IMG/VR virus record: IMGVR_UViG_3300005293_000009
Location: 1-64,000 of that record
Reading direction: 5' to 3' (one strand)
Length of the DNA: 64,000 nucleotides
Source of the DNA: a virus
Both the position numbers and the translations under genes were made by a program. This document shows, piece after piece, positions 51,163 to 63,539 of this stretch (the first letter of the stretch is position 1; each line of letters starts with the position of its first letter). A model generated the notes under the pieces. That model searched no databases and was not told where the DNA came from. It was given only the letters and a program-made list of their open reading frames with translations.

Positions 51163-51186
51163 GTTTAGTGCCCGGACTCTTACGTG
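51163..51186 (+). repeat. 24-bp intergenic motif, copy 1
   Basis: GTTTAGTG, CCCGGA, CTCTTACGTG. Lies just after a terminator and 35 bases before the next -35. Confidence 0.9.
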
Positions 51187-51221
51187 GTTATGGATGCCGA
51201 AGATAAGGTCATCGCTTATAG

Positions 51222-51250
51222 TTGACATGCGGTACCGGATCATGTAAGCT
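51222..51250 (+). promoter_or_regulatory. Promoter with leader
   Basis: TTGACA and TAAGCT with a 17-base spacer; the leader ends in GAAGGGAAATCGAA before the ATG at 51279. Confidence 0.88.
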
Positions 51251-51278
51251 GGAGCTACGCCGACGAAGGGAAATCGAA

Positions 51279-51488
51279 ATGGCGAAGATGCTGACAGTGC
51301 AGGTTGAGGAAGGCCCCCTGGTCATTCCGGTTGCCGTGGATGTGTGGCAGGAGTGGATCGACGTTCACGCCGACGAGGATGAGGATGGGTTCGCGCTCGC
51401 AGAGGCGTACCTCTACGCCGACGAGGATGGTGCGATCATCTGCCAGTGTTGCGGCGTGAACTACAACCCGGCAGTTGACAAGGACTGA
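51279..51488 (+). CDS. Acidic small protein with Cys pair
   Basis: 69 residues. D-E-D-E-D near 33 and C-Q-C-C near 58. Possible metal binding; unknown. Confidence 0.75.
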   Translation: MAKMLTVQVEEGPLVIPVAVDVWQEWIDVHADEDEDGFALAEAYLYADEDGAIICQCCGVNYNPAVDKD

Positions 51489-51503
51489 AGAGTCCTGTAG
51501 GCT
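51475..51503 (+). promoter_or_regulatory. Promoter with leader
   Basis: TTGACA and TAGGCT with a 17-base spacer; leader ends in GGAAGGGAAATC before the ATG at 51532. Confidence 0.9.
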
Positions 51504-51531
51504 GTAACTACAACGAACAGGAAGGGAAATC

Positions 51532-51849
51532 ATGTTCACTCTCAAGCTCACCGATTCCGATGAGGCACTCCAGGTCGAAGGCATCGACCTCAACGTCTGG
51601 GACTCGAACCTCTACGGCTCTGGACCGGCGCGCGGTATCGTGGTCACCGGATACCCCATGTTCAAGGACGAGAACGGTCTCTGGGACACCGACACCGATG
51701 TCATCCTGTTCAGCGCCGACACCAACTTCAATCCGGAAGAGTGGGACGAAGACGCCTGGTACGGCCTGAGCGAGGACACCGCCCCCGGCGAGGTCCCGAA
51801 TGAAGTCATGACCCTCGTCAATAACATCCTCAAGGAGCTTTCGGTATGA
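51532..51849 (+). CDS. Acidic hypothetical protein
   Basis: 105 residues with many Asp/Glu and Trp, including N-P-E-E-W-D-E-D-A-W-Y. Beta-rich first half. Overlaps the next start (ATGA). Confidence 0.75.
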   Translation: MFTLKLTDSDEALQVEGIDLNVWDSNLYGSGPARGIVVTGYPMFKDENGLWDTDTDVILFSADTNFNPEEWDEDAWYGLSEDTAPGEVPNEVMTLVNNILKELSV

Positions 51850-52037
51850 GCACGATCACCGTTCACCCCCGGTTCGCCACCCTGGAATGGGCGTGCAACA
51901 ACGACGATGAGCACGAGGGTGCGGACGACCAGGAAATCGTCCTCCAGCCTCTCTCGGACATCGAGGATTCCGGCACCGCGATCTGCCCGCAGTGTGGCGA
52001 GGACATGGAACTCGTGAGCGTGACTGTCACGCAGTAG
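51846..52037 (+). CDS. Acidic zinc protein
   Basis: 63 residues with N-terminal W-A-C and C-terminal I-C-P-Q-C-G-E; three or more Cys could bind zinc. Unknown. Confidence 0.75.
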   Translation: MSTITVHPRFATLEWACNNDDEHEGADDQEIVLQPLSDIEDSGTAICPQCGEDMELVSVTVTQ

Positions 52038-52060
52038 TCCCAAAGTAGTGCGGGTCGGGT

Positions 52061-52089
52061 TTGACATCCGGCCCGCATTGCTGTACGCT
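52061..52089 (+). promoter_or_regulatory. Promoter with leader
   Basis: TTGACA and TACGCT with a 17-base spacer; leader ends in GGAAGGGAAACCA before the ATG at 52120. Confidence 0.88.
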
Positions 52090-52119
52090 TGAAGTATCAG
52101 CCAAACGGAAGGGAAACCA

Positions 52120-52581
52120 ATGGCATCTCTCACTCAGACTCAACTCGAAGCGAACGCGCTTCTCCGTCAGCACGGCCTCTACGAGAAGGGGTGGCGGTTC
52201 ATCTGGGACAACGCGAAGACGCGCGGCGGTCAGTGCAAGCACCGCGAGCGCACGATCAGCATGAGCAAGTACCTCGTGCCGCTGTGGTCCGAGGACCAGG
52301 TGACGCAGACGCTCATCCACGAGGTCGCGCACGCGGTCGTGGGTCCCGGCAACGGGCACGGCCCCGTATGGGCGCGGCAGATGCGCGCCATGGGTGTGCG
52401 GGCGGATCGTTGCCACAGCAACGAGACCGTACAGGGCCGGTACCTTGCGATCTGCGACCACTGCGGCGTGGAGGCACACCGCGCGCACCGCATGAGCCCC
52501 GCCATGAAGCAGGGCCGACACCTTCACGCGGCGTGCCGCAAGCCGGTGCGGTGGGTTGACACCGCCACCCTGGTGCGGTAA
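52120..52581 (+). CDS. SprT-like metalloprotease with C-terminal zinc part
   Basis: 153 residues. H67-E-V-A-H71-A is the protease motif, G-H-G-P-V-W-A-R-Q-M follows, and C-D-H-C near 112 with C-R near 145 may be a zinc ribbon. This is closer to full SprT than the protein at 34217. SprT/Spartan relatives clear DNA-protein crosslinks. Confidence 0.88.
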   Translation: MASLTQTQLEANALLRQHGLYEKGWRFIWDNAKTRGGQCKHRERTISMSKYLVPLWSEDQVTQTLIHEVAHAVVGPGNGHGPVWARQMRAMGVRADRCHSNETVQGRYLAICDHCGVEAHRAHRMSPAMKQGRHLHAACRKPVRWVDTATLVR

Positions 52582-52584
52582 GGT
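52556..52584 (+). promoter_or_regulatory. Leaderless promoter
   Basis: TTGACA and TAAGGT with a 17-base spacer, six bases before the ATG at 52591; one of the few leaderless units right of 51 kb. Confidence 0.88.
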
Positions 52585-52590
52585 AGAGGC

Positions 52591-52824
52591 ATGGCAAGAG
52601 AAACGCGCCGGGTCCGGGTCGAAGACATCGATCCGGGCCTTGAGCAGGAGAACCCGCAGACCTGGCTTCGCATCCTGCCGTATGACGGGTGCGGTCAGTA
52701 CAACGCGGATCGCACCATGCGGTACATCAACTGGTGCGACCCGGACGATGACGATGAGTACCCGGTACAGCACGGACAATGGTACCCGGTCGGCACACTG
52801 ATACCGCTTGACTTCTACGTCTAG
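52591..52824 (+). CDS. Small hypothetical protein
   Basis: 77 residues with R-V-R-V-E-D-I-D and acidic D-D-D-D-E-Y; Tyr/Trp-rich. Unknown. Confidence 0.7.
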   Translation: MARETRRVRVEDIDPGLEQENPQTWLRILPYDGCGQYNADRTMRYINWCDPDDDDEYPVQHGQWYPVGTLIPLDFYV

Positions 52825-52836
52825 ACCCTGTAAGCT
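52808..52836 (+). promoter_or_regulatory. Promoter with leader
   Basis: TTGACT and TAAGCT with a 17-base spacer; leader ends in GAAGGGAAATCGAA before the ATG at 52868. Confidence 0.88.
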
Positions 52837-52867
52837 GTAAGTACAAGCCAACCGAAGGGAAATCGAA

Positions 52868-53197
52868 ATGGCAACGTACACAGACGACATTGACCCGGAG
52901 GGCCGCTTCTGGGTCCACGACACCGTGACGGACGATCAGCCGGATGTCGGCATGCCGTTCGGTGAAGCGACGGTCGGGATCGTGGACGAGCACGAGGGCG
53001 GTGTGGTGCTGTACTGCCACGAGGCTTCCGCGCCGTCCATCCTCAAAATGCTCCGCCGATCAGCCGCACCGGGAAAGCTGGTGTTTCAGGGCGCAATCGT
53101 GGACACGCACCAGGAGCTTCCCGAGTCCGAGCGGTTCGTCACGGTCTGGGGCGAGACGGAGTGGTTCGAGCGCGTCAAGCTCGCGCGGTTCGAGTAA
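52868..53197 (+). CDS. Hypothetical protein
   Basis: 109 residues, alpha-beta, with G-G-V-V-L-Y-C-H-E-A near 48 and a basic helix after it. No known family. Confidence 0.75.
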   Translation: MATYTDDIDPEGRFWVHDTVTDDQPDVGMPFGEATVGIVDEHEGGVVLYCHEASAPSILKMLRRSAAPGKLVFQGAIVDTHQELPESERFVTVWGETEWFERVKLARFE

Positions 53198-53230
53198 ACA
53201 GCACGCCGCCTCCGGGCGGCTTTGCTGTTT
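53196..53230 (+). terminator. Terminator overlapping the 24-bp motif
   Basis: AAACAGCA and GCCGCC pair with GGCGGC and TGCTGTTT. The final GTTT is also the first four bases of motif copy 2. Confidence 0.85.
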
Positions 53231-53250
53231 AGTGCCGATCCTCTTGCGTG
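53227..53250 (+). repeat. 24-bp intergenic motif, copy 2
   Basis: GTTTAGTG, CCGATC, CTCTTGCGTG. Eleven bases before the next -35, and sharing four bases with the preceding terminator. Confidence 0.9.
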
Positions 53251-53260
53251 CGGATGCGGC

Positions 53261-53289
53261 TTGACATTGGCGTGCGGATGCGATACGCT
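53261..53289 (+). promoter_or_regulatory. Promoter with leader
   Basis: TTGACA and TACGCT with a 17-base spacer; leader ends in GGGAAGGGAACCCC before the ATG at 53317. Confidence 0.88.
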
Positions 53290-53316
53290 TGAGGTACATC
53301 GAGGGAAGGGAACCCC

Positions 53317-53637
53317 ATGAAGGAATACCAAGTCAGCCTGAGCCTGCCGGTCGAAGCGCTGGACGTTGCGGGCGCGGTCGCAGAGTTTCGCTGGGACGTG
53401 GCGAACGGGCCTGCCTATGTGTACGGCGTGGATACGGGCGAGGAACTGCTGAGCTACGACTCGGAGACTCGCACCGCTACCGCTGGCGCACGGATCGACA
53501 AGGGCGCGCTTGACGCGCTCGCGGATCGCGTGCTTGACCGTGCGGACGTGGACGAGACAGGCTACCTCATCGCGGGCGCGGATGAGGTTCGCGACATCCT
53601 CCGTGACGAGCTTTACAAGCTGCTCGGCATGGTGTAG
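53317..53637 (+). CDS. Hypothetical protein
   Basis: 106 residues. Strand-rich first half, helical C-terminal half (R-V-L-D-R-A-D, V-R-D-I-L-R-D-E-L). Unknown. Confidence 0.75.
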   Translation: MKEYQVSLSLPVEALDVAGAVAEFRWDVANGPAYVYGVDTGEELLSYDSETRTATAGARIDKGALDALADRVLDRADVDETGYLIAGADEVRDILRDELYKLLGMV

Positions 53638-53640
53638 GCT
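53612..53640 (+). promoter_or_regulatory. Leaderless promoter
   Basis: TTTACA and TAGGCT with a 17-base spacer, six bases before the ATG at 53647. Confidence 0.78.
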
Positions 53641-53646
53641 AGAGCC

Positions 53647-53904
53647 ATGGGACAGACACAGACCACCAAGCTCGCCGGTAGCCTCGCGGTCGGGGATCGC
53701 ATCCTCTGGGACGGCGTGCCTGCAACGGTGACGTACCGCCAGAACTACCGGGTGGCGATGCTCCCCGGCGTGCAGACCGAACTCATGGTGCAGGGCGAGA
53801 ACTTCACCGCCGCGACCACGATCAACGCGGGCGATGCGGTCGTCATGGCAGACGAGCCGTGTGCCAAGTGCGCGAACGGGATGCATCGCGGGGTGCTCGC
53901 GTGA
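53647..53904 (+). CDS. Small protein with Cys pair
   Basis: 85 residues, beta-rich, ending with C-A-K-C-A-N-G-M. Unknown; overlaps the next start by GTGA. Confidence 0.7.
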   Translation: MGQTQTTKLAGSLAVGDRILWDGVPATVTYRQNYRVAMLPGVQTELMVQGENFTAATTINAGDAVVMADEPCAKCANGMHRGVLA

Positions 53905-54050
53905 CGCTCGGAGATGAGGCGCAGAAGTACGCCGACCTCGCAACGGGCGCGCTCGAAGAGTCGAAGCGCCGGTCAGACCCCCGCGAAGCCGACCGAGACA
54001 TCGCACGCGCGGCAGTCTACGCGCAACTGGCTCGCGCCGCGCAGAGTTGA
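53901..54050 (+). CDS. 49-residue helical protein, GTG start
   Basis: Ala/Arg/Asp-rich helix with Y-A-D-L-A-T-G-A-L-E-E-S. Overlaps the preceding stop; likely co-translated with it. Confidence 0.65.
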   Translation: MTLGDEAQKYADLATGALEESKRRSDPREADRDIARAAVYAQLARAAQS

Positions 54051-54075
54051 CAGCTTGCCGCCGATGCGGTAAGCT
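54047..54075 (+). promoter_or_regulatory. Promoter with leader
   Basis: TTGACA and TAAGCT with a 17-base spacer; leader ends in GAGAAGGGAAATCTC before the ATG at 54112. The -35 overlaps the preceding stop. Confidence 0.88.
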
Positions 54076-54111
54076 CGAAGTATCACAACGACAACCGAGA
54101 AGGGAAATCTC

Positions 54112-54477
54112 ATGCTCAACCTCTACTCCACCCCCTCACACATCGAGGCACCGGACTTCGGCAAGTACTTCGGGCGTGACGGTCTGGGATACCAGGCCTA
54201 CGCGGAAGCGGAACAGGCGTACATCGACGCGCTGAAAGCGTGGGCGAAGAAGCTCGCACCGGCATCGCCCATCGCTGGCGAGCTTGTCAGCATGCCCTAC
54301 GCGGACGGTGCCGCGCTGTACATCATCGTGCAGTCGTCGGGCAAGCACGGACTCATGCCGGTGCCGGTCGGGGACGCCTGGCGCGACCCGAACTTCGAGC
54401 AGTACGCAACGGTCGCCGCACTGAAAGACATGGTGGCGCGGAACCGACGCTTCGAGAAGGCGCGGGCGCGCGTTTGA
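54112..54477 (+). CDS. Hypothetical protein
   Basis: 121 residues with a helical middle (Y-A-E-A-E-Q-A-Y-I-D-A-L-K-A-W) and basic C-terminus. Its first residues (L-N-L-Y-S-T-P-S-H-I) resemble the start of the DUF7178-like gene at 59949 (L-N-T-I-P-T-P-A-H-I). Confidence 0.75.
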   Translation: MLNLYSTPSHIEAPDFGKYFGRDGLGYQAYAEAEQAYIDALKAWAKKLAPASPIAGELVSMPYADGAALYIIVQSSGKHGLMPVPVGDAWRDPNFEQYATVAALKDMVARNRRFEKARARV

Positions 54478-54502
54478 CACTCTGAACGTGAGGGTGTAGT
54501 CT
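54474..54502 (+). promoter_or_regulatory. Leaderless promoter
   Basis: TTGACA and TAGTCT with a 17-base spacer, six bases before the ATG at 54509. Confidence 0.88.
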
Positions 54503-54508
54503 GGGGAC

Positions 54509-54763
54509 ATGGCAAACGAACCGGACTACATCCTCACGATCAAGATGTCCAAGCACGGCGCGGAGGACGCGCTGGAGAAGTTCGACGGCTGGGAGGGCAC
54601 GCGGCACATCGCGAGCGTCCCGGACGATGACGGTGCGCGCATCGTCACAATCTGGCATGTGCCGAACGCAACCGTAGGCGCGGGGATCATCCTCTCATGC
54701 GGAGGCTGGATCGATGACCTCGTTTGGGGAGACTACCGTCTCATCCCGAATCGGCGTCTGTAG
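54509..54763 (+). CDS. Small hypothetical protein
   Basis: 84 residues. Y-I-L-T-I-K-M-S-K-H-G, helix, H-I-A-S-V-P-D-D-D, strand: a ferredoxin-like order. Overlaps the next GTG start. Confidence 0.7.
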   Translation: MANEPDYILTIKMSKHGAEDALEKFDGWEGTRHIASVPDDDGARIVTIWHVPNATVGAGIILSCGGWIDDLVWGDYRLIPNRRL

Positions 54764-54900
54764 TGGCGCGCGTCATCGACCCCAGCACAGGGGAGGACGT
54801 GCGGACGTGTGCCGGATGCGGCATCGACCATGATGCGGAAGGCTTGACGTGCTTCAACGCGCGGGACTTGTGCATCGACTGTTGTGGCGAGACTCACTGA
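54763..54900 (+). CDS. 45-residue zinc protein, GTG start
   Basis: C-A-G-C-G, C-F-N and C-I-D-C-C give five or six Cys in 45 residues. One-base overlap with the stop before. Probably a zinc ribbon. Confidence 0.65.
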   Translation: MARVIDPSTGEDVRTCAGCGIDHDAEGLTCFNARDLCIDCCGETH

Positions 54901-54916
54901 AAGGCCCTCCGGGGCG

Positions 54917-54940
54917 AACGCAAGAGTATGGGCACTAAAC
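54917..54940 (-). repeat. 24-bp intergenic motif, copy 3
   Basis: Reading on the minus strand: GTTTAGTG, CCCATA, CTCTTGCGTT. Lies between two convergent genes. Confidence 0.88.
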
Positions 54941-54948
54941 GTGCAACG

Positions 54949-54978
54949 CGAAAGGGCACCCTCTCGGATGCCCTTTCG
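54949..54978. terminator. Bidirectional terminator between convergent genes
   Basis: Ten-base perfect stem CGAAAGGGCA / TGCCCTTTCG with a ten-base loop, placed between converging units at 54763-54900 and 54981-55145. Confidence 0.8.
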
Positions 54979-54980
54979 GA

Positions 54981-55145
54981 TCAGTTGGCGAACAGAACCT
55001 TGCGCTTGTCGATCCAATCGACTACGCGGGCCTCTCCAGCGGGGCGACCCTTGAGCCAAGTGCGGGATGCCGCTTCGGTTCCCCGCGCGTAATCCAGCCA
55101 TTCCCCATCAACGAGAATCTGTCCGAGATATTCTTCCAGTTCCAT
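54981..55145 (-). CDS. Small leftward hypothetical protein
   Basis: 54 residues from the ATG at 55145, with GGGAGAGAAA upstream. Acidic N-terminus (M-E-L-E-E-Y), basic C-terminus (D-K-R-K). One of three leftward genes in the right-hand region, each with its own promoter. Unknown. Confidence 0.75.
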   Translation of the reverse strand: MELEEYLGQILVDGEWLDYARGTEAASRTWLKGRPAGEARVVDWIDKRKVLFAN

Positions 55146-55173
55146 TTTCTCTCCCTTTTGACTTGTTACTTCG

Positions 55174-55202
55174 ATACTACAGGAAAGAATGCGGAATGTC
55201 AA
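55174..55202 (-). promoter_or_regulatory. Leftward promoter with leader
   Basis: TTGACA and TAGTAT with a 17-base spacer on the minus strand; leader of about 25 bases. Divergent from the promoter at 55226. Confidence 0.88.
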
Positions 55203-55225
55203 ACTAAGAATCTTCGGATTCTGGC

Positions 55226-55254
55226 TTGCAATGCCGTGCGGATGGGTGTAGGCT
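55226..55254 (+). promoter_or_regulatory. Promoter with leader
   Basis: TTGCAA and TAGGCT with a 17-base spacer; leader ends in GGGAAGGGAACCTAAA before the ATG at 55286. Confidence 0.85.
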
Positions 55255-55285
55255 GGCTTTAGACAGACAGGGAAGGGAACCTAAA

Positions 55286-55903
55286 ATGTCAAACCTCCAC
55301 ACCCGCCACATCACGGCGGTTTTCCGCACGGCGGATGCCGACCTCATTGCGGAAGGCATCGACTGGTACGCGGACGCGCGCCGCGTTGCGGACGCTTACG
55401 CGGTCAAGTACAACGTGCCGGTGTCGGTCGCGGCTGGCGTGCTCGCGGCGCTCTCGCCCCTCAATTCGTGGGGGAACAACGTCAACCTCGCGGGGCGCAT
55501 GCTCGCGTCGGGCGGGACCCTTGAGCGCGGATATCTCAAGGCGAACCTCGCAAAGGCGCGGGCGATCATGGCTACGGGATCACTTGAGCCTTTGGGCGGG
55601 CTCAAGGTGAACAACTTCTACCTCTCGATCATTACGGGCGGCGCGGAAGGCGTGACGATTGATCGCCACGCATGGTGCATCGCGCACAACGATCGTTCGC
55701 GGACAAACTCGATCCCGAAACTCTCGCCTAAGGCGTACGCGGAGATTGCCGAGCGCTACCGCCGTGCGGCTGTAATCCTCTCGAAAGAGTACGGCATGCC
55801 GCTCTCGCCCGCCGTGGTACAGGCGGTAACGTGGGTTGTCTGGCGTCGGCGGTACTGGGGCGCGGGCGCGTTTGACACTTACAACGTGGATGATGTAAAC
55901 TAG
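55286..55903 (+). CDS. DUF7178-like protein A
   Basis: 205 residues. A-G-V-L-A-A-L-S-P-L-N-S-W-G-N-N, K-V-N-N-F-Y-L and V-T-I-D126-R-H128-A are the family blocks. The helical layout with a conserved Asp recalls HhH-GPD DNA glycosylases but the helix-hairpin-helix is not clear. A second copy lies at 59949. Function unknown; a DNA or nucleotide base-handling enzyme is a reasonable hypothesis. Confidence 0.78.
   Translation: MSNLHTRHITAVFRTADADLIAEGIDWYADARRVADAYAVKYNVPVSVAAGVLAALSPLNSWGNNVNLAGRMLASGGTLERGYLKANLAKARAIMATGSLEPLGGLKVNNFYLSIITGGAEGVTIDRHAWCIAHNDRSRTNSIPKLSPKAYAEIAERYRRAAVILSKEYGMPLSPAVVQAVTWVVWRRRYWGAGAFDTYNVDDVN
55872..55901 (+). promoter_or_regulatory. Leaderless promoter
   Basis: TTGACA and TAAACT with an 18-base spacer, six bases before the ATG at 55908. 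Confidence 0.85.
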
Positions 55904-55907
55904 ATCC

Positions 55908-56150
55908 ATGGTTGTTATCTCATTCTTCATTTTCGCCGGGGTTATAGGTTTCGTGACCTATAACCTCGGACGTGCGCGCCGCATGAATCATGGTCTCAAG
56001 CATCGCCCGGATGACTACGCGGTGAACCTCCAGACAGGCGAGATAATCGAACGCGGTTCGGCAGCGTGGAACCTCGCATGCCGTGAGGGTAACCTCGCGA
56101 CAACCCTACAGCCCCAGAATGGCGCGCGGAAAGGTGTGACGTTCGAATGA
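55908..56150 (+). CDS. Small membrane-anchored protein
   Basis: 80 residues with one N-terminal membrane segment (about 2-19) and a soluble tail. Coupled to the redoxin gene by ATGA, so it may anchor or pair with it. Confidence 0.75.
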   Translation: MVVISFFIFAGVIGFVTYNLGRARRMNHGLKHRPDDYAVNLQTGEIIERGSAAWNLACREGNLATTLQPQNGARKGVTFE

Positions 56151-56371
56151 TCACAGTGTGGACTCAAGCGGGATGCGGGCCGTGCTACGCGCTCAAGCGG
56201 GCGCTCAAGGGCATTACGTACCTTGAGCGGGATGCCGCTAGCGCGGACGCCGGTAGGCTCGCGTACTGGCGCGCTCAAGGCTGGCAGACGCCTATCGTAG
56301 AGCATGCGGGCGGGACGTTCGGGGGTTTCGATCCCGCGAAGGTTCGCGCGCTCGCGGACGCGCGCCGATAG
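56147..56371 (+). CDS. Glutaredoxin / NrdH-like redoxin
   Basis: 74 residues with C10-G-P-C13 in V-W-T-Q-A-G-C-G-P-C, Q-T-P-I-V near 48 (the cis-Pro block) and G-G-F-D-P. Size and motifs fit NrdH/glutaredoxin-like redoxins that supply electrons to ribonucleotide reductase. No reductase gene is in the window, so the host enzyme or one outside it would be the partner. Confidence 0.85.
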   Translation: MITVWTQAGCGPCYALKRALKGITYLERDAASADAGRLAYWRAQGWQTPIVEHAGGTFGGFDPAKVRALADARR

Positions 56372-56387
56372 CGCCCCCCTACGGGGA

Positions 56388-58298: not shown

Positions 58299-58303
58299 CG
58301 CAT

Positions 58304-58352: not shown

Positions 58353-58359
58353 CTGCCCG

Positions 58360-58383: not shown

Positions 58384-58407
58384 GCGCTGCTCGCGCCGCA
58401 AATGACA

Positions 58408-58427
58408 ACAGCCCCTTTCGGGGCTGT
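58408..58427 (-). terminator. Terminator of the leftward gene
   Basis: Eight-base stem ACAGCCCC / GGGGCTGT with a four-base loop, just past the leftward gene's end. Confidence 0.75.
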
Positions 58428-58430
58428 GTG

Positions 58431-58652
58431 TCAGGCGAAGATTCCGCGTGCCGCTTCCCAGGCTTCCTGGGCTCGGGCTTCTTCCCATCCCCGGTTCTCG
58501 TAGTAGCGTTCTACTGCGAGTTCTGCCTGAACCTCAGCGTACGATTCTTCGGCATCCGGGAGGTATTCGCAAATCTGCGCGAAGGTGAATGTAACGCCGG
58601 GGCGAATCAGGCCGCAACGCTTAGCGCGGGCGATGATATCCATGGGGTTCAT
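58431..58652 (-). CDS. Leftward small helical protein
   Basis: 73 residues from the ATG at 58652 with AGGGAA upstream. Begins D-I-I-A-R-A-K-R-C-G-L and ends with a Glu/Ala-rich helix; F-T-F-A-Q-I-C-E-Y could be a turn of a DNA-binding fold. Unknown. Confidence 0.75.
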   Translation of the reverse strand: MNPMDIIARAKRCGLIRPGVTFTFAQICEYLPDAEESYAEVQAELAVERYYENRGWEEARAQEAWEAARGIFA

Positions 58653-58699
58653 TTCGTTCCCTGTCTCTCTGTTTAGTTTCTGTCTTGCTGTATATCTAT

Positions 58700-58728
58700 A
58701 CTCTACAGCACAATGCCGCGAGAGTCAA
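58700..58728 (-). promoter_or_regulatory. Leftward promoter with leader
   Basis: TTGACT and TAGAGT with a 17-base spacer on the minus strand; leader holds AACAGAGAGACAGGGAACG. Divergent from the promoter at 58763. Confidence 0.88.
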
Positions 58729-58762
58729 GCCGAGATTCAAGAAAAAAACTTTCCGTTCTAGG

Positions 58763-58791
58763 TTGACACGTTGCCAGGCATAGGGTAATGT
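58763..58791 (+). promoter_or_regulatory. Promoter of Lsr2-like gene
   Basis: TTGACA and TAATGT with a 17-base spacer; leader of about 45 bases ends in AACAGGAAGAG before the ATG at 58842. Confidence 0.85.
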
Positions 58792-58841
58792 TGTACTTAC
58801 AAGGGCAGAGAGCCCCAAACCACAACAGGAAGAGAAACATC

Positions 58842-59162
58842 ATGCGTACCACCCTCAACATCAAGCACTCGTCCCCCGCCGACCTCGCCCGCGCGCTCCG
58901 CTCCGCCGCCGCGAAGATCGATGCCGGTGACATCACGCCCGGTGCGGACATCACGGTCGGAAGCGTCCGCGTGCAGGTCGCGGTCCCGCAGGAGTCGGAG
59001 AAGCGCGCGTGGGCGCGTGCCAATGGCTACCCGGTCGGTTCGCGCGGTCGCTACTCGAAGGCCCTCGAAGAGGCCTACGCCGCGCACGTCGCGTCGGAGA
59101 AGGCCGCACGCGCCGCAGAGCGCAAGGCCGCACGCGCCGCGAAGGCCCTTGTCAGCGCCTAG
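58842..59162 (+). CDS. Lsr2-like DNA-binding protein
   Basis: 106 residues from the ATG at 58842. R-A-W-A-R-A-N-G-Y-P-V-G-S-R68-G69-R70 matches the Lsr2 C-terminal domain, whose R-G-R enters the minor groove of AT-rich DNA; V-G-S-V-R-V-Q-V precedes it. The C-terminal 25 residues are an Ala/Lys/Arg helix as in histone-like tails. The usual Lsr2 dimerisation N-terminus is not obvious. It could displace or mimic the host silencer. Confidence 0.82.
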   Translation: MRTTLNIKHSSPADLARALRSAAAKIDAGDITPGADITVGSVRVQVAVPQESEKRAWARANGYPVGSRGRYSKALEEAYAAHVASEKAARAAERKAARAAKALVSA

Positions 59163-59188
59163 CGCTCGCGGAAGGTCCCGCTAAGAAT

Positions 59189-59215
59189 CCCCCGGCAAAT
59201 CGCCGGGGGTTTCTT
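59189..59215 (+). terminator. Intrinsic terminator
   Basis: Eight-base stem CCCCCGGC / GCCGGGGG with a five-base loop, followed by TTTCTTG. The next -35 begins at its tail. Confidence 0.9.
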
Positions 59216-59242
59216 GCATTCCCCGCAGAACTATGGTAGGCT
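59214..59242 (+). promoter_or_regulatory. Leaderless promoter
   Basis: TTGCAT and TAGGCT with a 17-base spacer, six bases before the ATG at 59249. Confidence 0.8.
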
Positions 59243-59248
59243 TACAGC

Positions 59249-59401
59249 ATGGACATTACGACACCCTGCCACGGCCTACCCCCGCAGATTGACTATGCGT
59301 TCGAGGGTCGCGCGTACATGCAAGAGCGGGTAGTTGACGGCTTTGGGTGCCCTGCCCCCGGATGCTATCTATCCTGGGATGCCCAAGGCAAAGCGCAATA
59401 G
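59249..59401 (+). CDS. 50-residue Cys-containing protein
   Basis: P-C-H-G and G-C-P-A-P-G-C carry three Cys and one His, a possible zinc site. Start fixed by the leaderless promoter. Unknown. Confidence 0.75.
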   Translation: MDITTPCHGLPPQIDYAFEGRAYMQERVVDGFGCPAPGCYLSWDAQGKAQ

Positions 59402-59404
59402 CGC

Positions 59405-59433
59405 TTGACACAATGGAAAAAGCCTGATAGGCT
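59405..59433 (+). promoter_or_regulatory. Promoter with leader
   Basis: TTGACA and TAGGCT with a 17-base spacer; leader holds GGGAGAGAGG and GGGAAGAGGGAATC before the ATG at 59473. Confidence 0.9.
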
Positions 59434-59472
59434 ATAGACATAGGGAGAGAGGCTCCCAGGGAAGAGGGAATC

Positions 59473-59625
59473 ATGCTCAAGGTCATCGCCACCGGGATCG
59501 CGACCGACTACGCCTTTGAGGCGGAGTTCGCGGAGGCGGCGGCTGAGGATGCCCTCCGCGACTGGTACGCGGACGCGGCGAACTGGCCGCGCTGGGACCA
59601 CGAAGAGGGGAAGTGGGACCTGTAG
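59473..59625 (+). CDS. 50-residue acidic protein
   Basis: A-E-F-A-E-A-A-A-E-D-A-L-R-D-W-Y helix and Trp-rich end (W-P-R-W-D-H-E-E-G-K-W). Unknown. Confidence 0.75.
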   Translation: MLKVIATGIATDYAFEAEFAEAAAEDALRDWYADAANWPRWDHEEGKWDL

Positions 59626-59648
59626 GGTCCCCGCCCCTCGCGGGCCAG

Positions 59649-59672
59649 CACGCAAGAGTCTGCCCACTAAAC
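59649..59672 (-). repeat. 24-bp intergenic motif, copy 8
   Basis: On the minus strand: GTTTAGTG, GGCAGA, CTCTTGCGTG. Its TAG is the stop codon of the leftward gene that follows. Confidence 0.9.
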
Positions 59673-59831
59673 AGAAGAGCCGCGACCCTCGCGGATCGCG
59701 GCGTTCCGTGCCGCCGAGCGCGTGCGCGCTCGCTGTGTGCGGCTGTCGGCGTGCGGACTGGTCCGGGAGCCTTTCCGGAGTTCCTGCATCGCGCGGTACT
59801 GGGCTGTCGGCTCATTCTTGCGCTTGCTCAT
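59667..59831 (-). CDS. 54-residue basic leftward protein
   Basis: From the ATG at 59831 to a TAG inside motif copy 8. Strongly basic (K-R-K-N, T-R-T-Q-R-A-R-T-R-S), likely to bind nucleic acid. Leaderless promoter at the correct distance upstream supports it. Confidence 0.7.
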   Translation of the reverse strand: MSKRKNEPTAQYRAMQELRKGSRTSPHADSRTQRARTRSAARNAAIREGRGSSV

Positions 59832-59837
59832 ACTGAA

Positions 59838-59865
59838 AGCTTAGCACACTCTCGCGAGGATGCAA
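59838..59865 (-). promoter_or_regulatory. Leftward leaderless promoter
   Basis: TTGCAT and TAAGCT with a 16-base spacer on the minus strand; the -10 is six bases before the ATG at 59831. Confidence 0.75.
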
Positions 59866-59889
59866 GACAAAAGTTTTTTTAGTTTGAGC

Positions 59890-59917
59890 TTGCATTCTCG
59901 CTGGAACCTGATAAGCT
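59890..59917 (+). promoter_or_regulatory. Promoter with leader
   Basis: TTGCAT and TAAGCT with a 16-base spacer; leader ends in GAGAGAGGAACCCCAA before the ATG at 59949. Confidence 0.78.
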
Positions 59918-59948
59918 TGCTATCAAGAGCAAGAGAGAGGAACCCCAA

Positions 59949-60560
59949 ATGCTCAACACCATCCCCACCCCCGCGCACATCGTCGCGGCGTTCCACGCCA
60001 TTGATGACCTGGCTGACGTGTCGGCAGGCATCGCATGGTATGAGGATGCCTACGGCATGGCTGAGACGCTGGGCGTCGTCTACGGGTGCACTACGGCACA
60101 GGCGGCAGGCATCATCGCCGCGCTGAGCCCTCAGCAGGGCTGGGCGCAGAACGTCAAGGCGGCAGAGAAATTCCTCGCCACGGGCGCGCGTGTGCACACT
60201 GAGAGCAACATGGGCAAGTGCCGTCGCATCCTCGCGGGTGAGGACATTCTGAAAGTGCTCAACGCACCTAAGACCCAGAATTTCTACCTGGGAATTGTGA
60301 GCATGGGCGTTCAGGGCGTGTGCATTGATCGGCACGCGCTTGATATCGCCCTGGGCGTCCGCCACACTGACGCCTCGCGCCCTGCCATTGGCGCGCGTCT
60401 CTACGTCACCGCCGCACAGGCCTACAGGGACGCCGCTGAGGCCCTGAACGCTGAGGGTGTGGTAATCACCCCGGCAGAGCTTCAGAGCGTCACCTGGGCC
60501 GCACACGTCCCCGTGTGGTCGGGCGTCAAGACGGGTGAGCCGGTCGCGCTGAGCTACTGA
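59949..60560 (+). CDS. DUF7178-like protein B
   Basis: 203 residues, paralogue of the protein at 55286. A-G-I-I-A-A-L-S-P-Q-Q-G-W, T-Q-N-F-Y-L-G-I and C-I-D127-R-H129-A line up. Divergence is large, so the pair is old or came separately. The conserved D-R-H suggests an enzyme; substrate unknown. Confidence 0.8.
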   Translation: MLNTIPTPAHIVAAFHAIDDLADVSAGIAWYEDAYGMAETLGVVYGCTTAQAAGIIAALSPQQGWAQNVKAAEKFLATGARVHTESNMGKCRRILAGEDILKVLNAPKTQNFYLGIVSMGVQGVCIDRHALDIALGVRHTDASRPAIGARLYVTAAQAYRDAAEALNAEGVVITPAELQSVTWAAHVPVWSGVKTGEPVALSY

Positions 60561-60571
60561 GGCAAGGCAAG

Positions 60572-60606
60572 CGCCCTAGAATCTCTCAGAGAATCTAGGG
60601 CGTTTG
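60572..60606 (+). terminator. Intrinsic terminator
   Basis: Nine-base stem CGCCCTAGA / TCTAGGGCG with an inner TCTC/GAGA pair, followed by TTT. Confidence 0.85.
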
Positions 60607-60608
60607 AC

Positions 60609-60638
60609 TTGACAGAATGGCGCGGCATGCCTTATGCT
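60609..60638 (+). promoter_or_regulatory. Promoter with leader
   Basis: TTGACA and TATGCT with an 18-base spacer; leader ends in AGGGAGAGAGGAACCCC before the ATG at 60665. Confidence 0.88.
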
Positions 60639-60664
60639 TGTACTAACAGGGAGAGAGGAACCCC

Positions 60665-60790
60665 ATGGACATCACTCACGAAGACTACTGCGACTGCGGT
60701 GACGCGCAGGCTTGCGCAGAGCGCGAGGCGGAGGCGCACAAGGGCCTCGCGCACGCGGACCCGGTGTGGGTCGCGAGCATCAGCCGCTAG
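60665..60790 (+). CDS. 41-residue Cys-containing protein
   Basis: Y-C-D-C-G-D and A-C-A-E near residues 8-18, with two or three His later. Possible zinc site. Unknown. Confidence 0.7.
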   Translation: MDITHEDYCDCGDAQACAEREAEAHKGLAHADPVWVASISR

Positions 60791-60795
60791 CGGGA

Positions 60796-60824
60796 GGGGC
60801 TGGGCCTACGGGCTCAGCCCTTTT
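60796..60824 (+). terminator. Intrinsic terminator
   Basis: GGGCTGGGCC pairs with GGGCTCAGCCC (one wobble), loop TAC, followed by TTTT. Confidence 0.88.
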
Positions 60825-60837
60825 ACCGGCCCCGGCA

Positions 60838-60861
60838 CACGCAAGAGTATCGGCACTAAAC
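60838..60861 (-). repeat. 24-bp intergenic motif, copy 9
   Basis: On the minus strand: GTTTAGTG, CCGATA, CTCTTGCGTG. Sits 27 bases before the next -35. Confidence 0.92.
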
Positions 60862-60888
60862 TGGGCGGAAATTAGTTTCCATTTCGGT

Positions 60889-60918
60889 TTGACATATGCC
60901 CCCGGCATGCTATAGACT
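60889..60918 (+). promoter_or_regulatory. Promoter with leader
   Basis: TTGACA with TAGACT at 18 bases or TATAGA at 16; leader ends in GAGGGAGAGGAACCCCAGA before the ATG at 60947. Confidence 0.85.
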
Positions 60919-60946
60919 GTAAGTAACGAGGGAGAGGAACCCCAGA

Positions 60947-61147
60947 ATGGCCGCAACAATCGCCGCAGAGTCGGCACTCGACAACCTGATCGAAGAGGAA
61001 TGGTTTGACGCTGAGGGCATCCTGATCAATCGGACGGATGACGGCGCGATCATCGTCTGGTGCGACCGGGAAGTCTACTACATCAGTAGCGAGGGTTTCA
61101 TCAGCCGCCGCGACTTCAAGGGTGGACCCCAGCGGGTCATCCTGTAA
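60947..61147 (+). CDS. Small hypothetical protein
   Basis: 66 residues, acidic N-terminal helix and beta hairpin (I-I-V-W-C-D-R-E-V-Y-Y-I). Unknown. Confidence 0.75.
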   Translation: MAATIAAESALDNLIEEEWFDAEGILINRTDDGAIIVWCDREVYYISSEGFISRRDFKGGPQRVIL

Positions 61148-61156
61148 AAACTAGAG

Positions 61157-61186
61157 TGGCCTGGGGGTTTGACTCCCAGGCCATTC
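61157..61186 (+). terminator. Terminator enclosing the next -35
   Basis: TGGCCTGGG pairs with CCCAGGCCA around a nine-base loop that includes TTGACT of the next promoter, followed by TTC. Confidence 0.8.
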
Positions 61187-61197
61187 TGGTGTAGACT
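61169..61197 (+). promoter_or_regulatory. Promoter nested in terminator, with leader
   Basis: TTGACT and TAGACT with a 17-base spacer; leader ends in GAGGGAGAGGAACCCTA before the ATG at 61224. Confidence 0.85.
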
Positions 61198-61223
61198 ACT
61201 AGTAACGAGGGAGAGGAACCCTA

Positions 61224-61400
61224 ATGGACCTGAACGCACTGGATCGCTGGATCACCGGCAACGACGGCATGGATCAGTACGAGGATTGCCCCTGCGGCGA
61301 TGAGGAATGCGATGGGGAGCACGAGGATGATCGTGACTTCGACAGCATGCCGGGAGGCGCGGACTACGAGGACTGGGAGCCGTTCTTCCCTGAGGACTGA
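61224..61400 (+). CDS. 58-residue acidic Cys-containing protein
   Basis: C-P-C-G-D-E-E-C-D near residue 23 and many Asp/Glu (E-H-E-D-D-R-D, Y-E-D-W-E). May bind metal or mimic nucleic acid. Unknown. Confidence 0.75.
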   Translation: MDLNALDRWITGNDGMDQYEDCPCGDEECDGEHEDDRDFDSMPGGADYEDWEPFFPED

Positions 61401-61428
61401 GAGGGAGGGGTTCGCCCCTCCCTCTCCC
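61399..61428 (+). terminator. Intrinsic terminator with TTCG loop
   Basis: Perfect twelve-base stem GAGAGGGAGGGG / CCCCTCCCTCTC with a TTCG tetraloop; its first bases overlap the stop codon. Confidence 0.9.
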
Positions 61429-61452
61429 GTTTAGTGCCTGTACTCTTACGTG
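61429..61452 (+). repeat. 24-bp intergenic motif, copy 10
   Basis: GTTTAGTG, CCTGTA, CTCTTACGTG. Immediately follows the terminator stem. Confidence 0.92.
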
Positions 61453-61483
61453 ATCCGGTTTCCGCTTTTTATGGGATTCCCGA

Positions 61484-61513
61484 TTGTACTTTGTCCCCCG
61501 TATGGTGTATGCT
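61484..61513 (+). promoter_or_regulatory. Leaderless promoter
   Basis: TTGTAC and TATGCT with an 18-base spacer, six bases before the ATG at 61520. Confidence 0.78.
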
Positions 61514-61519
61514 GTAACT

Positions 61520-61720
61520 ATGAACGAAGACCTGGTGCAGACTCAGCCCATCCTCATCATCCCCCCGCGTCCCGCGCTCCCCGCGCGCGTGCGGACGCGC
61601 AAGCGTGTGAACATGCCGCTGTGGGGATTCATGCTTACGCTCTTCGGCGCGCAGGCTGTGGGCGGAGTCGCCACAATCATCGGGATTGTGGCTCTGGCTT
61701 TGACATTCGGTTCAAACTAG
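61520..61720 (+). CDS. Small membrane protein
   Basis: 66 residues: a Pro/Arg-rich cytoplasmic part and hydrophobic stretch about residues 35-62. Unknown. Confidence 0.72.
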   Translation: MNEDLVQTQPILIIPPRPALPARVRTRKRVNMPLWGFMLTLFGAQAVGGVATIIGIVALALTFGSN

Positions 61721-61728
61721 AGTACGAT
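61700..61728 (+). promoter_or_regulatory. Promoter with leader
   Basis: TTGACA and TACGAT with a 17-base spacer; leader ends in AGAGAGAAGGGAAGCCCCA before the ATG at 61757. Confidence 0.88.
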
Positions 61729-61756
61729 AGTACTAACAGAGAGAAGGGAAGCCCCA

Positions 61757-62065
61757 ATGGCTACTCAGACGGCAATCATCCTCGGCCAGGACGGCACTGT
61801 CACGGAAGTGCAGTACGCCGAAAAGGACTCGTACCCCACGATGCGCAACGCGGTCGGCGGCATGATCGAGTCCGTGTCCTACTGGACGAAGAACATCGAC
61901 GCCTACGTGAACGAAGAGGGCCTGTACACGCCGGGACTGGAAGTGAACCCGTTCGGGCGCAAGGTCTTCGGTCAGCGCTGGATGGGCAACATCGTGATCC
62001 CCCGCGTGACGCCCACGAAGCGCAAGCGCCTCGCGGCGATGGGCCTGCCCATCGCGCAGGCCTAG
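61757..62065 (+). CDS. DUF3846-like protein
   Basis: 102 residues. Strand-rich start (A-I-I-L-G-Q-D-G-T-V-T), V-G-G-M-I-E-S-V, Y-V-N-E-E-G-L and P-F-G-R-K fit DUF3846, a short family common in phages and plasmids and sometimes seen beside conjugation or anti-defence genes. No activity is known. Confidence 0.75.
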   Translation: MATQTAIILGQDGTVTEVQYAEKDSYPTMRNAVGGMIESVSYWTKNIDAYVNEEGLYTPGLEVNPFGRKVFGQRWMGNIVIPRVTPTKRKRLAAMGLPIAQA

Positions 62066-62078
62066 CGCCTCGCACAAG

Positions 62079-62113
62079 CCGCCCAGATGCCGATTAGGTG
62101 TCTGGGCGGTTCT
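62079..62113 (+). terminator. Intrinsic terminator
   Basis: Nine-base stem CCGCCCAGA / TCTGGGCGG with a 13-base loop, then TTCT. Confidence 0.88.
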
Positions 62114-62133
62114 GTGTTAGAGTAGAGATATCG

Positions 62134-62209
62134 CAACGCGGGGCTTTGACTGTGAGACTCAGCGTGAAATCGGAGTAATAGCCTCCGGAGTATGCACCCG
62201 CTTGCGTTG
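62134..62209 (+). ncRNA. Candidate structured RNA
   Basis: About 76 bases between two terminators, closed by CAACGC / GCGTTG with GCGGG / CCCGC next to it, and with an inner GGAG/CTCC hairpin. No gene fits here. No strong promoter directly precedes it, only a TAGAGT at 62118-62123. It lacks a tRNA T-loop. Could be a leader element or a small RNA. Confidence 0.45.
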
Positions 62210-62265
62210 GCCCTAGCCGGTCTCCCTTCCTCTCTGTTCATCCGGCTAGGGCCTCTCTCGTTTTT
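62209..62265 (+). terminator. Intrinsic terminator
   Basis: Perfect twelve-base stem GGCCCTAGCCGG / CCGGCTAGGGCC with a long loop, followed after a few bases by TTTTT. Confidence 0.85.
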
Positions 62266-62292
62266 GACACAGCGCTAGAGTAATGCTAGACT
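62264..62292 (+). promoter_or_regulatory. Near-leaderless promoter
   Basis: TTGACA and TAGACT with a 17-base spacer; the ATG at 62300 is seven bases past the -10. Confidence 0.88.
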
Positions 62293-62299
62293 TGAATGT

Positions 62300-62488
62300 A
62301 TGGCCCTTCCCATCCTCGTCGGCGTAGGGGCGTTCGTGATCTTGGCGATCATGCTCGCCCTTCTTTGGACGAGCGCACGCTCTGACGAGAAGACAGACGC
62401 CGTAACGCAGGAAATCATCATCAAGGCCAATACGGGGCCTGTCATCGTGCACGCGCCCGTTGACACAACGCAAGAGGAGGAACACTAA
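62300..62488 (+). CDS. Small membrane protein
   Basis: 62 residues with one N-terminal membrane helix (about 4-24) and a soluble tail. AGGAGG for the next gene lies in its last codons. Confidence 0.75.
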   Translation: MALPILVGVGAFVILAIMLALLWTSARSDEKTDAVTQEIIIKANTGPVIVHAPVDTTQEEEH

Positions 62489-62677
62489 ATGCGAAACTTC
62501 TGGAATGTAGTACGTGAAGTCGAGTGGTACGCCGTGCTATCTATTGTGCTACTAGTCATCGCGCTAGTGCTCGCCGTGCTTATCGCCGTAGGCGTTATCG
62601 CCCCTCTGCTATGGGTGCTCATTATCGTACTGACACAGGCTGCTGTGGTCGCCGCTGTACTGTCTCACCGGACTTGA
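62489..62677 (+). CDS. Small two-helix membrane protein
   Basis: 62 residues beginning directly after the previous stop, with AGGAGG nine bases upstream. Two hydrophobic helices (about 14-36 and 38-58). The pair may work together; holin-like shape but no lysin nearby. Confidence 0.75.
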   Translation: MRNFWNVVREVEWYAVLSIVLLVIALVLAVLIAVGVIAPLLWVLIIVLTQAAVVAAVLSHRT

Positions 62678-62702
62678 CCCGCTAGCCGGTAGGGTGTATG
62701 CT
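62674..62702 (+). promoter_or_regulatory. Leaderless promoter
   Basis: TTGACC and TATGCT with a 17-base spacer, six bases before the ATG at 62709. Confidence 0.82.
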
Positions 62703-62708
62703 TGTCCC

Positions 62709-63266
62709 ATGGGACAAGCAACAGAGAAGCAGACCACGCTCATCAAGAGCCTGCTGGACGAGCGCGAAGTCGGATCGACTGAAGCGCTCATCCGTGGGGC
62801 TCTGGACTCGGGCTCGCTGGACATTCGTTCGGCGTCCGAGTTCATCACGAAACTCTTCGCCGCGCCTCGCAAGCCGAAGGCCGCGCCTGCGGAGTCGCCC
62901 TGGACGAAGGCGAATGCCGCGCTCGCGAAGGTGGAAATCTCGTTCTACGCGATTCCGGCAGGATACGTCACGGCACAGCGTATCGACCTGTACGGCTCGG
63001 ACTACCTGTTCGTGCGCGTGCGCAACTATCAGGGCAAGCGGTATATCTCGCGCGTGCACGGCGCACCTGGCTCGCCCCGGTACTCGCGTATCGACCCTGT
63101 GACGACTCTGGCGCTCGCGACCATCATGCAGGACCGTCACGTCGAGTTTGCGGCGCTCTGGCACGAGCACAGCGGGCGCTGTGGGCGTTGCAACGCGACC
63201 CTGACGGATCAGGTTTCGCGTGAAAAGGGCCTCGGGCCTGACTGCGCGAAGGTCTGGGGCCTGTAG
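62709..63266 (+). CDS. DUF6011-domain protein
   Basis: 185 residues. The N-terminal part is helical (T-L-I-K-S-L-L-D-E-R-E, A-S-E-F-I-T-K-L-F); the C-terminal C-G-R-C-N-A-T-L-T-D with S-R-E-K-G-L-G-P-D-C is the DUF6011 zinc site. Such proteins are frequent in actinophages, often near recombination or nuclease genes. Function unknown. Confidence 0.85.
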   Translation: MGQATEKQTTLIKSLLDEREVGSTEALIRGALDSGSLDIRSASEFITKLFAAPRKPKAAPAESPWTKANAALAKVEISFYAIPAGYVTAQRIDLYGSDYLFVRVRNYQGKRYISRVHGAPGSPRYSRIDPVTTLALATIMQDRHVEFAALWHEHSGRCGRCNATLTDQVSREKGLGPDCAKVWGL

Positions 63267-63268
63267 GG

Positions 63269-63298
63269 TTCGCATTCTCTCCCGTTGTATGCTAGGCT
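63269..63298 (+). promoter_or_regulatory. Promoter with leader
   Basis: TTCGCA and TAGGCT with an 18-base spacer; leader ends in GGGAGAGAGGAACCCCAG before the ATG at 63326. Confidence 0.72.
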
Positions 63299-63325
63299 AG
63301 GTGCAACGGGAGAGAGGAACCCCAG

Positions 63326-63475
63326 ATGTGCACTTGCGAAAACCCCATCGCTACCGGCTCGGAGTGGTACAAGATTCCGGGCGGGCGCGAGCGGCTGTGG
63401 TGCTGCCACCTGTGCGGAGGCGACCTGCCTGCCGAGACGGAAGGCGGATACAGCGCCTCGCTGATCCAGTACTGA
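63326..63475 (+). CDS. 49-residue Cys-rich protein
   Basis: M-C-T-C-E at the start and C-C-H-L-C-G near residue 26: five Cys and a His, a probable zinc ribbon. Unknown. Confidence 0.75.
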   Translation: MCTCENPIATGSEWYKIPGGRERLWCCHLCGGDLPAETEGGYSASLIQY

Positions 63476-63478
63476 GCG

Positions 63479-63507
63479 AAGGGTGGGCCTGCGGGCTCAC
63501 CCTTTTC
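63479..63507 (+). terminator. Intrinsic terminator
   Basis: AAGGGTGGGCC pairs with GGGCTCACCCTT (one wobble) around a short loop, followed by TTCTCTT. Confidence 0.88.
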
Positions 63508-63515
63508 TCTTGCCC

Positions 63516-63539
63516 GTTTAGCGCCCGTACTCTTGCGTG
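63516..63539 (+). repeat. 24-bp intergenic motif, copy 11
   Basis: GTTTAGCG, CCCGTA, CTCTTGCGTG. Between a terminator and the next promoter, 52 bases before the -35. Confidence 0.92.

What the first reader, a model, noticed from the sequence alone, without database searches (positions are those of the whole stretch)
51163..63539. Eleven-copy 24-bp intergenic motif of unknown function
GTTTAGTG, six variable bases, CTCTTGCGTG recurs at 51163, 53227, 54917, 56388, 56810, 57683, 58360, 59649, 60838, 61429 and 63516, always exactly 24 bases. Six copies read on the plus strand and five on the minus. All lie in the gap after one transcription unit, usually after a hairpin terminator and before the next promoter. 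I found none left of 51 kb. The two halves are not inverted repeats of each other and orientation is not tied to transcription, which argues for DNA-level recognition. The closest known concept is the asymmetric stoperator of cluster A mycobacteriophages, but sequence and length differ. A recombination or rearrangement site for this modular region is another option.
Basis: seen in the sequence. Interest (0 to 1): 0.9.

Follow-up and report, generated by a model that had tools for sequence, protein, structure and literature searches.

The report
Phage early-gene boundary sites
A large virus of Microbacterium soil bacteria carries about a dozen copies of a 24-letter DNA tag, placed only in its repeated genome ends and nearly always just after an early gene finishes; the tag is kept by selection while the DNA around it changes freely, so it is very probably a docking site for an unidentified phage protein that marks or seals the ends of early genes.

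Summary
The window holds 12 copies of GTTTAGTG-N6-CTCTTGCGTG (chance 0.03); the 66.4-kb contig holds 14. The virus is an unnamed relative of ~190-kb Microbacterium phages (Zooman, Big4, A3Wally, Cece). In those four complete genomes the 11-12 sites per repeat copy all lie inside the 15.5-18 kb direct terminal repeat, which carries small early-type genes; none lies elsewhere. The distant relative Pumpernickel has its own version (TTAG-N7-TTCTYTTGCGT, spacing +1), about 12 copies, only in its repeat. At eight orthologous gaps the orientation is the same in every genome; the fixed bases are 87% identical there, the spacer 51%, the flanks 28-40%. Sites sit ~40 bp past the upstream stop codon, in tandem or convergent gaps, never in the divergent gaps examined. 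Bacterial genomes lack the motif (one chance hit). Best reading: binding sites of a phage DNA-binding protein acting at transcript ends, stoperator-like, but in both orientations and in apparently virulent phages. Gene-order breakpoints are not enriched at the motif, which speaks against a recombination site. The binder is not identified; a tandem-HTH protein (Zooman gp40) is a candidate with serious counter-evidence. New variant of a known, unexplained kind.

The parts
45850..64000 (.). Direct terminal repeat region (start inferred from the position of the terminase-small-like gene; probably continues past the window, sites reach 66,029 in the contig)
   Evidence: Gene at 45909-46820 matches gene 1 of Zooman, Big4, A3Wally and Cece, which starts 63 bases into their terminal repeat; in those genomes the sites recur at a constant offset at the right end. 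Boundary by homology only.
51163..51186 (+). motif copy, 1 mismatch, after an F13-family gene
53227..53250 (+). motif copy, exact
54917..54940 (-). motif copy in a convergent gap; orthologous to the site upstream of the DUF7178 gene in 5 relatives
56388..56411 (-). motif copy, exact
56810..56833 (+). motif copy of the second subclass (ATGCTTACGTG), upstream of an F6-family gene
57683..57706 (-). motif copy between a + gene and a candidate minus-strand noncoding RNA (convergent)
58360..58383 (+). motif copy in a convergent gap, upstream of the Lsr2-like gene unit
59649..59672 (-). motif copy in a convergent gap, exact
60838..60861 (-). motif copy, exact
61429..61452 (+). motif copy, 1 mismatch
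63516..63539 (+). motif copy, 1 mismatch
48691..48714 (-). possible weak copy (4 mismatches) inside gene F4; A3Wally has one in the same gene; may be explained by coding conservation
58842..59162 (+). Lsr2-like DNA-bridging protein gene (family F7), found in all related genomes where it could be sought; not claimed to be the binder

Best explanation
The 24-mer is an asymmetric recognition site for a phage-encoded, sequence-specific DNA-binding protein. Copies are spread through the early-type gene region that forms the direct terminal repeat, one at the 3' end of many transcription units, just past the terminator. The most likely action is stoperator-like: the bound protein forms a roadblock or boundary that stops RNA polymerase reading from one short early unit into the next or into a convergent unit. 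SHOWN by computation: the sites, their confinement to the repeat, anchoring to 3' ends, conservation of two half-sites with a freer spacer, conserved orientation per site, a matching lineage-specific variant in Pumpernickel, and absence from bacterial genomes. INFERRED: that a protein binds, that it is phage-encoded, that these genes are early, and that the protein blocks or insulates transcription. NOT KNOWN: which protein. The best candidate is the tandem helix-turn-helix protein at the end of the repeat (Zooman gp40 family), at about 30%.
For: Twelve sites against 0.03 expected. All <=3-mismatch sites of Zooman, Big4, A3Wally and Cece lie in the terminal repeat: 11, 11, 12 and 11 per repeat copy, although Zooman has more than 30 gaps of >=80 bp elsewhere without one. 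A 33-bit weight matrix scores nearly all of the 86 sites at 23-39 (two at 14 and 19); the best score in the non-repeat DNA scanned is 7.6. At eight orthologous gaps orientation agrees in all 5-6 genomes; identity is 0.87 for fixed bases, 0.51 for the spacer, 0.40 upstream and 0.28 downstream. Median distance is 39 bp to the upstream stop and 105 bp to the downstream start, not a uniform placement. In the window's contig 5 of 5 convergent gaps hold a site (5 of 6 with G001; one of the five borders a candidate RNA) and 0 of 5 divergent gaps do. Pumpernickel carries TTAG-N7-TTCTYTTGCGT about 12 times, only in its own repeat, with matching orientation at the four comparable positions. One exact hit in 84,980 bacterial/archaeal species genomes, in an unrelated MAG.
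Against: Many terminator-like gaps in the same region carry no site (11-13 gaps of >=40 bp in three genomes, 7 in A3Wally). Both orientations occur, whereas known stoperators lose activity when reversed (PMC9283540). Most sites lie between a terminator and the next promoter, so a roadblock there would act only on read-through. A few copies lie inside genes. The candidate binder's family has at least 116 homologues with near-identical recognition helices in environmental contigs, and 20 of those contigs show the motif only at chance level. Linker length does not track the spacing change: Cece has a shorter linker with the usual spacing.
Confidence: 0.5

Rival explanations
1. Genome-end element: a phage protein binds the dozen sites in each terminal repeat to act on the DNA ends (bridging left and right ends, staged DNA entry, replication-fork arrest or packaging), and the 3'-end position only keeps the sites out of promoters and genes.
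For: Confinement to the terminal repeat in five genomes. Zooman, Big4 and A3Wally carry paired DnaA-box-like TTATCCACA sequences right beside one copy, and no other exact copy was found in the scanned parts of Zooman.
Against: The repeat is also where short early-type units cluster, so confinement follows from a transcription role too. Sites overlap a stop codon and an RBS rather than the repeat ends; the DnaA-box pair is absent from Cece, Pumpernickel, G002 and the repeat of G000.
Confidence: 0.2
2. Operator or activator site for the promoter downstream: the protein switches each early unit on or off from an upstream position.
For: Sigma70-like promoters follow many sites, with -35 boxes 19-42 bp past the motif in several units.
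Against: Distance to the -35 box ranges from about 19 to over 200 bp and orientation is mixed; none of the divergent promoter gaps examined holds a site; the site is anchored to the upstream stop, not the downstream start.
Confidence: 0.13
3. Recombination or rearrangement site for cassette exchange, in the manner of Xer/pdif modules with a variable 6-base core.
For: A bipartite site with a variable core bordering gene units; some single-unit cassettes (Zooman gene 19, gene 39) are flanked by two copies and absent in some relatives.
Against: Gene-adjacency breaks are no commoner at motif gaps (0.85) than at other gaps of >=40 bp (0.92); orientation never flips at eight orthologous sites; the core differs between the two sites flanking a cassette. 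The halves are not inverted repeats.
Confidence: 0.07
4. RNA-level element or by-product of terminators and ribosome-binding sites.
For: Most copies follow a hairpin; one copy overlaps an RBS and codes for TQEEE.
Against: Both orientations are conserved, so two unrelated RNA sequences would be needed; flanking hairpins differ freely while the 24-mer is kept; many hairpin gaps have no motif; no Rfam match.
Confidence: 0.04

Closest known systems
Stoperators of cluster A mycobacteriophages and relatives (L5, Bxb1, TipsytheTRex; Rhodococcus CA)
   Same: Asymmetric, dispersed, intergenic or overlapping gene ends, in many copies, with lineage-specific sequence; recognised by one monomer through two DNA-binding domains in the solved case (PMC9283540, PMC6550527, PMC13313380).
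   Different: 13-14 bp there, 24 bp bipartite here; one orientation relative to transcription there, both here; whole genome there, terminal repeat only here; temperate immunity there, no integrase or repressor among the Zooman annotation read here (130.0-142.7 kb not read).
Repeated intergenic motifs of lytic Microbacterium phages, clusters EC, EI, EG (Jacobs-Sera 2020, PMC7302621)
   Same: Short conserved motifs, 5-12 copies, asymmetric in EC, small intergenic regions, function unknown.
   Different: EC motifs are 18 bp, all in one orientation, 21-30 bp upstream of start codons; these are 24 bp, bipartite, anchored to the upstream stop codon, in both orientations and confined to the terminal repeat.
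Start-associated sequences (SAS/ESAS) of cluster K mycobacteriophages and EF-type motifs
   Same: Repeated conserved motif; one copy here overlaps an RBS and start codon.
   Different: SAS lie immediately upstream of start codons; here only one site per genome does.
SPO1-type host-takeover module in a long terminal redundancy
   Same: Small genes in a long terminal repeat (the SPO1 parallel is from general knowledge; PMC6873191 concerns that gene cluster).
   Different: No comparable 24-bp repeated boundary motif is known to me there.

Membership tests
Cluster A stoperator | Asymmetric site of 13-14 bp | tested here: not met
   Asymmetric, but 24 bp with two conserved blocks (bases 2-8 and 14-24)
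Cluster A stoperator | One orientation relative to transcription | tested here: not met
   34 plus and 9 minus intergenic sites in four phages; 7 and 7 in the window's contig
Cluster A stoperator | Intergenic or overlapping gene ends | tested here: met
   43 of 55 sites intergenic in four phages; others overlap stop or start codons, lie in genes or lie at the repeat edge
Cluster A stoperator | 20-30 sites across the whole genome | tested here: not met
   11-12 per repeat copy, none outside the terminal repeat
Cluster A stoperator | Recognised by the phage immunity repressor; reversal abolishes activity | not testable with these tools
   No binding or reporter data; no repressor or integrase seen in the annotation read
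EC-type intergenic motif | All in one orientation, 21-30 bp upstream of start codons | tested here: not met
   Median 105 bp to the downstream start; both orientations (definition)
SAS/ESAS | Immediately upstream of start codons, in the RBS position | tested here: not met
   Only the F8/F9 copy fits
Xer/pdif-like recombination site | Imperfect inverted-repeat arms around a 6-bp core | tested here: not met
   Arms are not inverted repeats; they look more like weak direct repeats (STTnnGTG)
Xer/pdif-like recombination site | Gene gain and loss joins at the site | tested here: not met
   Breaks 0.85 at motif gaps against 0.92 at other gaps of >=40 bp
Binding site of the tandem-HTH (Zooman gp40) family | Protein and motif occur together | tested here: inconclusive
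   Protein present in all related genomes where it could be sought, but also in at least 116 environmental contigs; the 20 tested show the motif at chance level. The window's contig ends before the gene.

The most novel reading that the evidence does not exclude
A virulent phage uses a dedicated protein and a dozen two-way boundary sites to seal off each early transcription unit in both copies of its terminal repeat: a polarity-independent insulator system that also marks the genome ends, unlike immunity stoperators.
Probability: 0.2. Interest if true: 0.8.

Novelty: new variant of a known kind. Interest (0 to 1): 0.58.

Why it matters
Repeated intergenic motifs of unknown function have been reported in several lytic actinobacteriophage clusters and left unexplained (PMC7302621). 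This set is unusually testable: laboratory phages on Microbacterium foliorum carry it, the sites are long and specific, a diverged lineage carries a switched version, and placement points at transcript ends. If a protein is shown to act there in both orientations, it would extend the stoperator idea from temperate immunity to early-gene control in virulent phages.

Tried and rejected
Host-encoded site: the exact motif occurs once in 84,980 species genomes, in a Rhizobiales MAG. Wider phage distribution: outside this phage group a 30-bp query found only one weak Streptococcus satellite-phage hit among 50,697 phages, and a relaxed pattern in IMG/VR gave scattered single hits. Rfam: nothing. Recombination: breakpoint test negative. 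Gp40-type tandem-HTH protein as a proven binder: rejected as proven because its wider family lacks the motif; the linker-length argument fails on Cece. De novo motif search near gp40 homologues in environmental contigs found other repeated motifs, some promoter-like, not this one; that search also missed the known motif in some positive controls (L041 and L047), so its negatives are weak. Structure search of the gp40 model against the PDB gave no match with E <= 0.001; the model is moderate (pLDDT 76); the viral library gave mostly uncharacterised phage proteins. One deposited relative whose name and accession are blanked in the tool output was left out.
Full report
WHAT IT IS IN. The window is positions 1-64000 of a 66,415-base virus record. 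It carries rIIA/rIIB and NAD-salvage genes. Its nicotinamide phosphoribosyltransferase is 74-78% identical to those of Microbacterium phages Cece, Zooman, Big4 and A3Wally, 186-195 kb each, and 65% to Pumpernickel. The gene at 45909 matches gene 1 of those phages, which starts at base 62-63 of their genomes.

THE OBSERVATION. GTTTAGTG-N6-CTCTTGCGTG occurs 12 times in the window with up to 3 mismatches, against 0.03 expected in shuffles, and 14 times in the contig, 7 on each strand.

WHERE IT OCCURS. In the complete relatives every <=3-mismatch site lies in the direct terminal repeat and recurs at a constant offset at the right end: 11, 11, 12 and 11 per copy in Zooman, Big4, A3Wally and Cece, none in between. 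From those offsets the repeats are about 17.1, 17.7, 15.5 and 18.1 kb. Zooman has more than 30 gaps of >=80 bp outside the repeat without a site. Two more IMG/VR contigs carry it, G001 with 3 copies and G002 with 11. Pumpernickel has no copy of this form but has TTAG-N7-TTCTYTTGCGT, one base longer between the halves, about 12 times per repeat copy and only there; the other three phages searched have none apart from one two-mismatch hit. At the four positions that can be compared, upstream of F5, F6, F7 and at the F8/F9 junction, Pumpernickel sites have the same orientation. (F numbers are protein families defined.)

SELECTION. Across eight orthologous gaps in five or six genomes, orientation agrees in every case. 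Identity is 0.87 at fixed bases, 0.51 in the spacer, 0.40 in 40 bases upstream and 0.28 downstream, the last about random. Sites were chosen by motif score, which raises the identity of the fixed bases to some degree; the constant position, orientation and gene context at orthologous gaps do not depend on that. Eighty-six sites give a 33-bit profile; the best score in the non-repeat DNA scanned is 7.6, while nearly all sites score 23-39 and two score 14 and 19. Bases 2-8 and 14-24 are conserved; the halves are not inverted repeats and share only STTnnGTG as weak direct repeats.

PLACE RELATIVE TO GENES. In four annotated phages the median distance is 39 bp from the upstream stop (quartiles 30 and 50) and 105 bp to the downstream start; mean relative position 0.33 against 0.50 for random placement. 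In the window's contig, which has minus-strand genes, sites lie in the convergent gaps at 54917, 58360, 59649 and 66006, and at 57683 beside a candidate minus-strand RNA. G001 has one convergent gap without a site. None of the divergent gaps seen has one. The two orientations are 34 plus and 9 minus among intergenic sites in the four phages. Copies also overlap the F10 stop codon and the F8 stop, RBS and F9 start. Not every terminator gap has a site: 11-13 gaps of >=40 bp in Zooman, Big4 and Cece and 7 in A3Wally lack one.

MECHANISM. These facts fit a DNA-recognition site for a trans-acting phage factor: long, asymmetric, conserved against drifting flanks, switched as a set in another lineage, and absent from bacterial genomes except one chance hit. 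Anchoring to 3' ends and to convergent gaps fits a boundary or roadblock acting on transcription better than a promoter operator. That step is inference, as is the early timing of these genes, which rests on the gene type and the parallel with other phages. Many sites lie between a terminator and the next promoter, so the effect would be on read-through, not on initiation.

THE BINDER. The last gene of the repeat (Zooman gp40, Cece gp45; Pumpernickel gp49, close to the end) encodes a protein with two helix-turn-helix units; the first resembles sigma factor region 4, and a two-sequence AlphaFold model shows two four-helix units at 13-60 and 94-159. It is flanked by a site on both sides in Zooman and Big4, and in the deposited phages searched it occurs only in this group. 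Against it, at least 116 environmental contigs encode relatives with nearly the same recognition helices, and the 20 tested show the motif only at chance; a near relative with the same gene neighbourhood (L048) lacks it at comparable gaps. I put this candidate at about 30%.

RIVALS. Recombination: adjacency breaks are 0.85 at motif gaps and 0.92 at other gaps of >=40 bp. Genome-end function remains open, since the sites are confined to the repeat and three phages have DnaA-box-like pairs beside one copy.

COMPARISON. Stoperators share asymmetry, dispersion and gene-end placement, but are 13-14 bp, genome-wide, in one orientation and tied to immunity. Cluster EC motifs of lytic Microbacterium phages are the closest unexplained kind, but lie 21-30 bp upstream of starts in one orientation. 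Two literature searches with phage names found no paper on these phages' motif; the library held is partial.

Noticed in passing
window 57725-57975 (-): Candidate noncoding RNA of about 250 nt on the minus strand with a sigma70-like promoter (TTGACA..ATAAGCT) and a strong terminator; no match in the loci searched.
   Followed up: partly
window 55286-55903 and 59949-60560: Two diverged copies of the DUF7178 gene (family F5), about 78% and 49% identical to relatives; each has a small minus-strand gene beside it.
   Followed up: no
L033:15346-15366, L038:15949, L039:13751: Paired DnaA-box-like TTATCCACA sequences directly after a motif copy in the terminal repeats of Zooman, Big4 and A3Wally; absent in Cece, Pumpernickel and G002.
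   Followed up: partly
window 51163-63539: Two motif subclasses, ACTCTTGCGTG and ATGCTTACGTG, with linked bases 15-16 and 20 (Fisher 8e-7, sites not independent).
   Followed up: partly
L046-L125: A large family of tandem-HTH proteins related to Zooman gp40 in environmental phage contigs, with near-invariant recognition helices.
   Followed up: partly
L070, L078, L120; L079, L084: Other repeated motifs near gp40 relatives: CTACCTGATATAAT (extended -10-like) and AGAAAAAATAAATACA; roles not examined.
   Followed up: no
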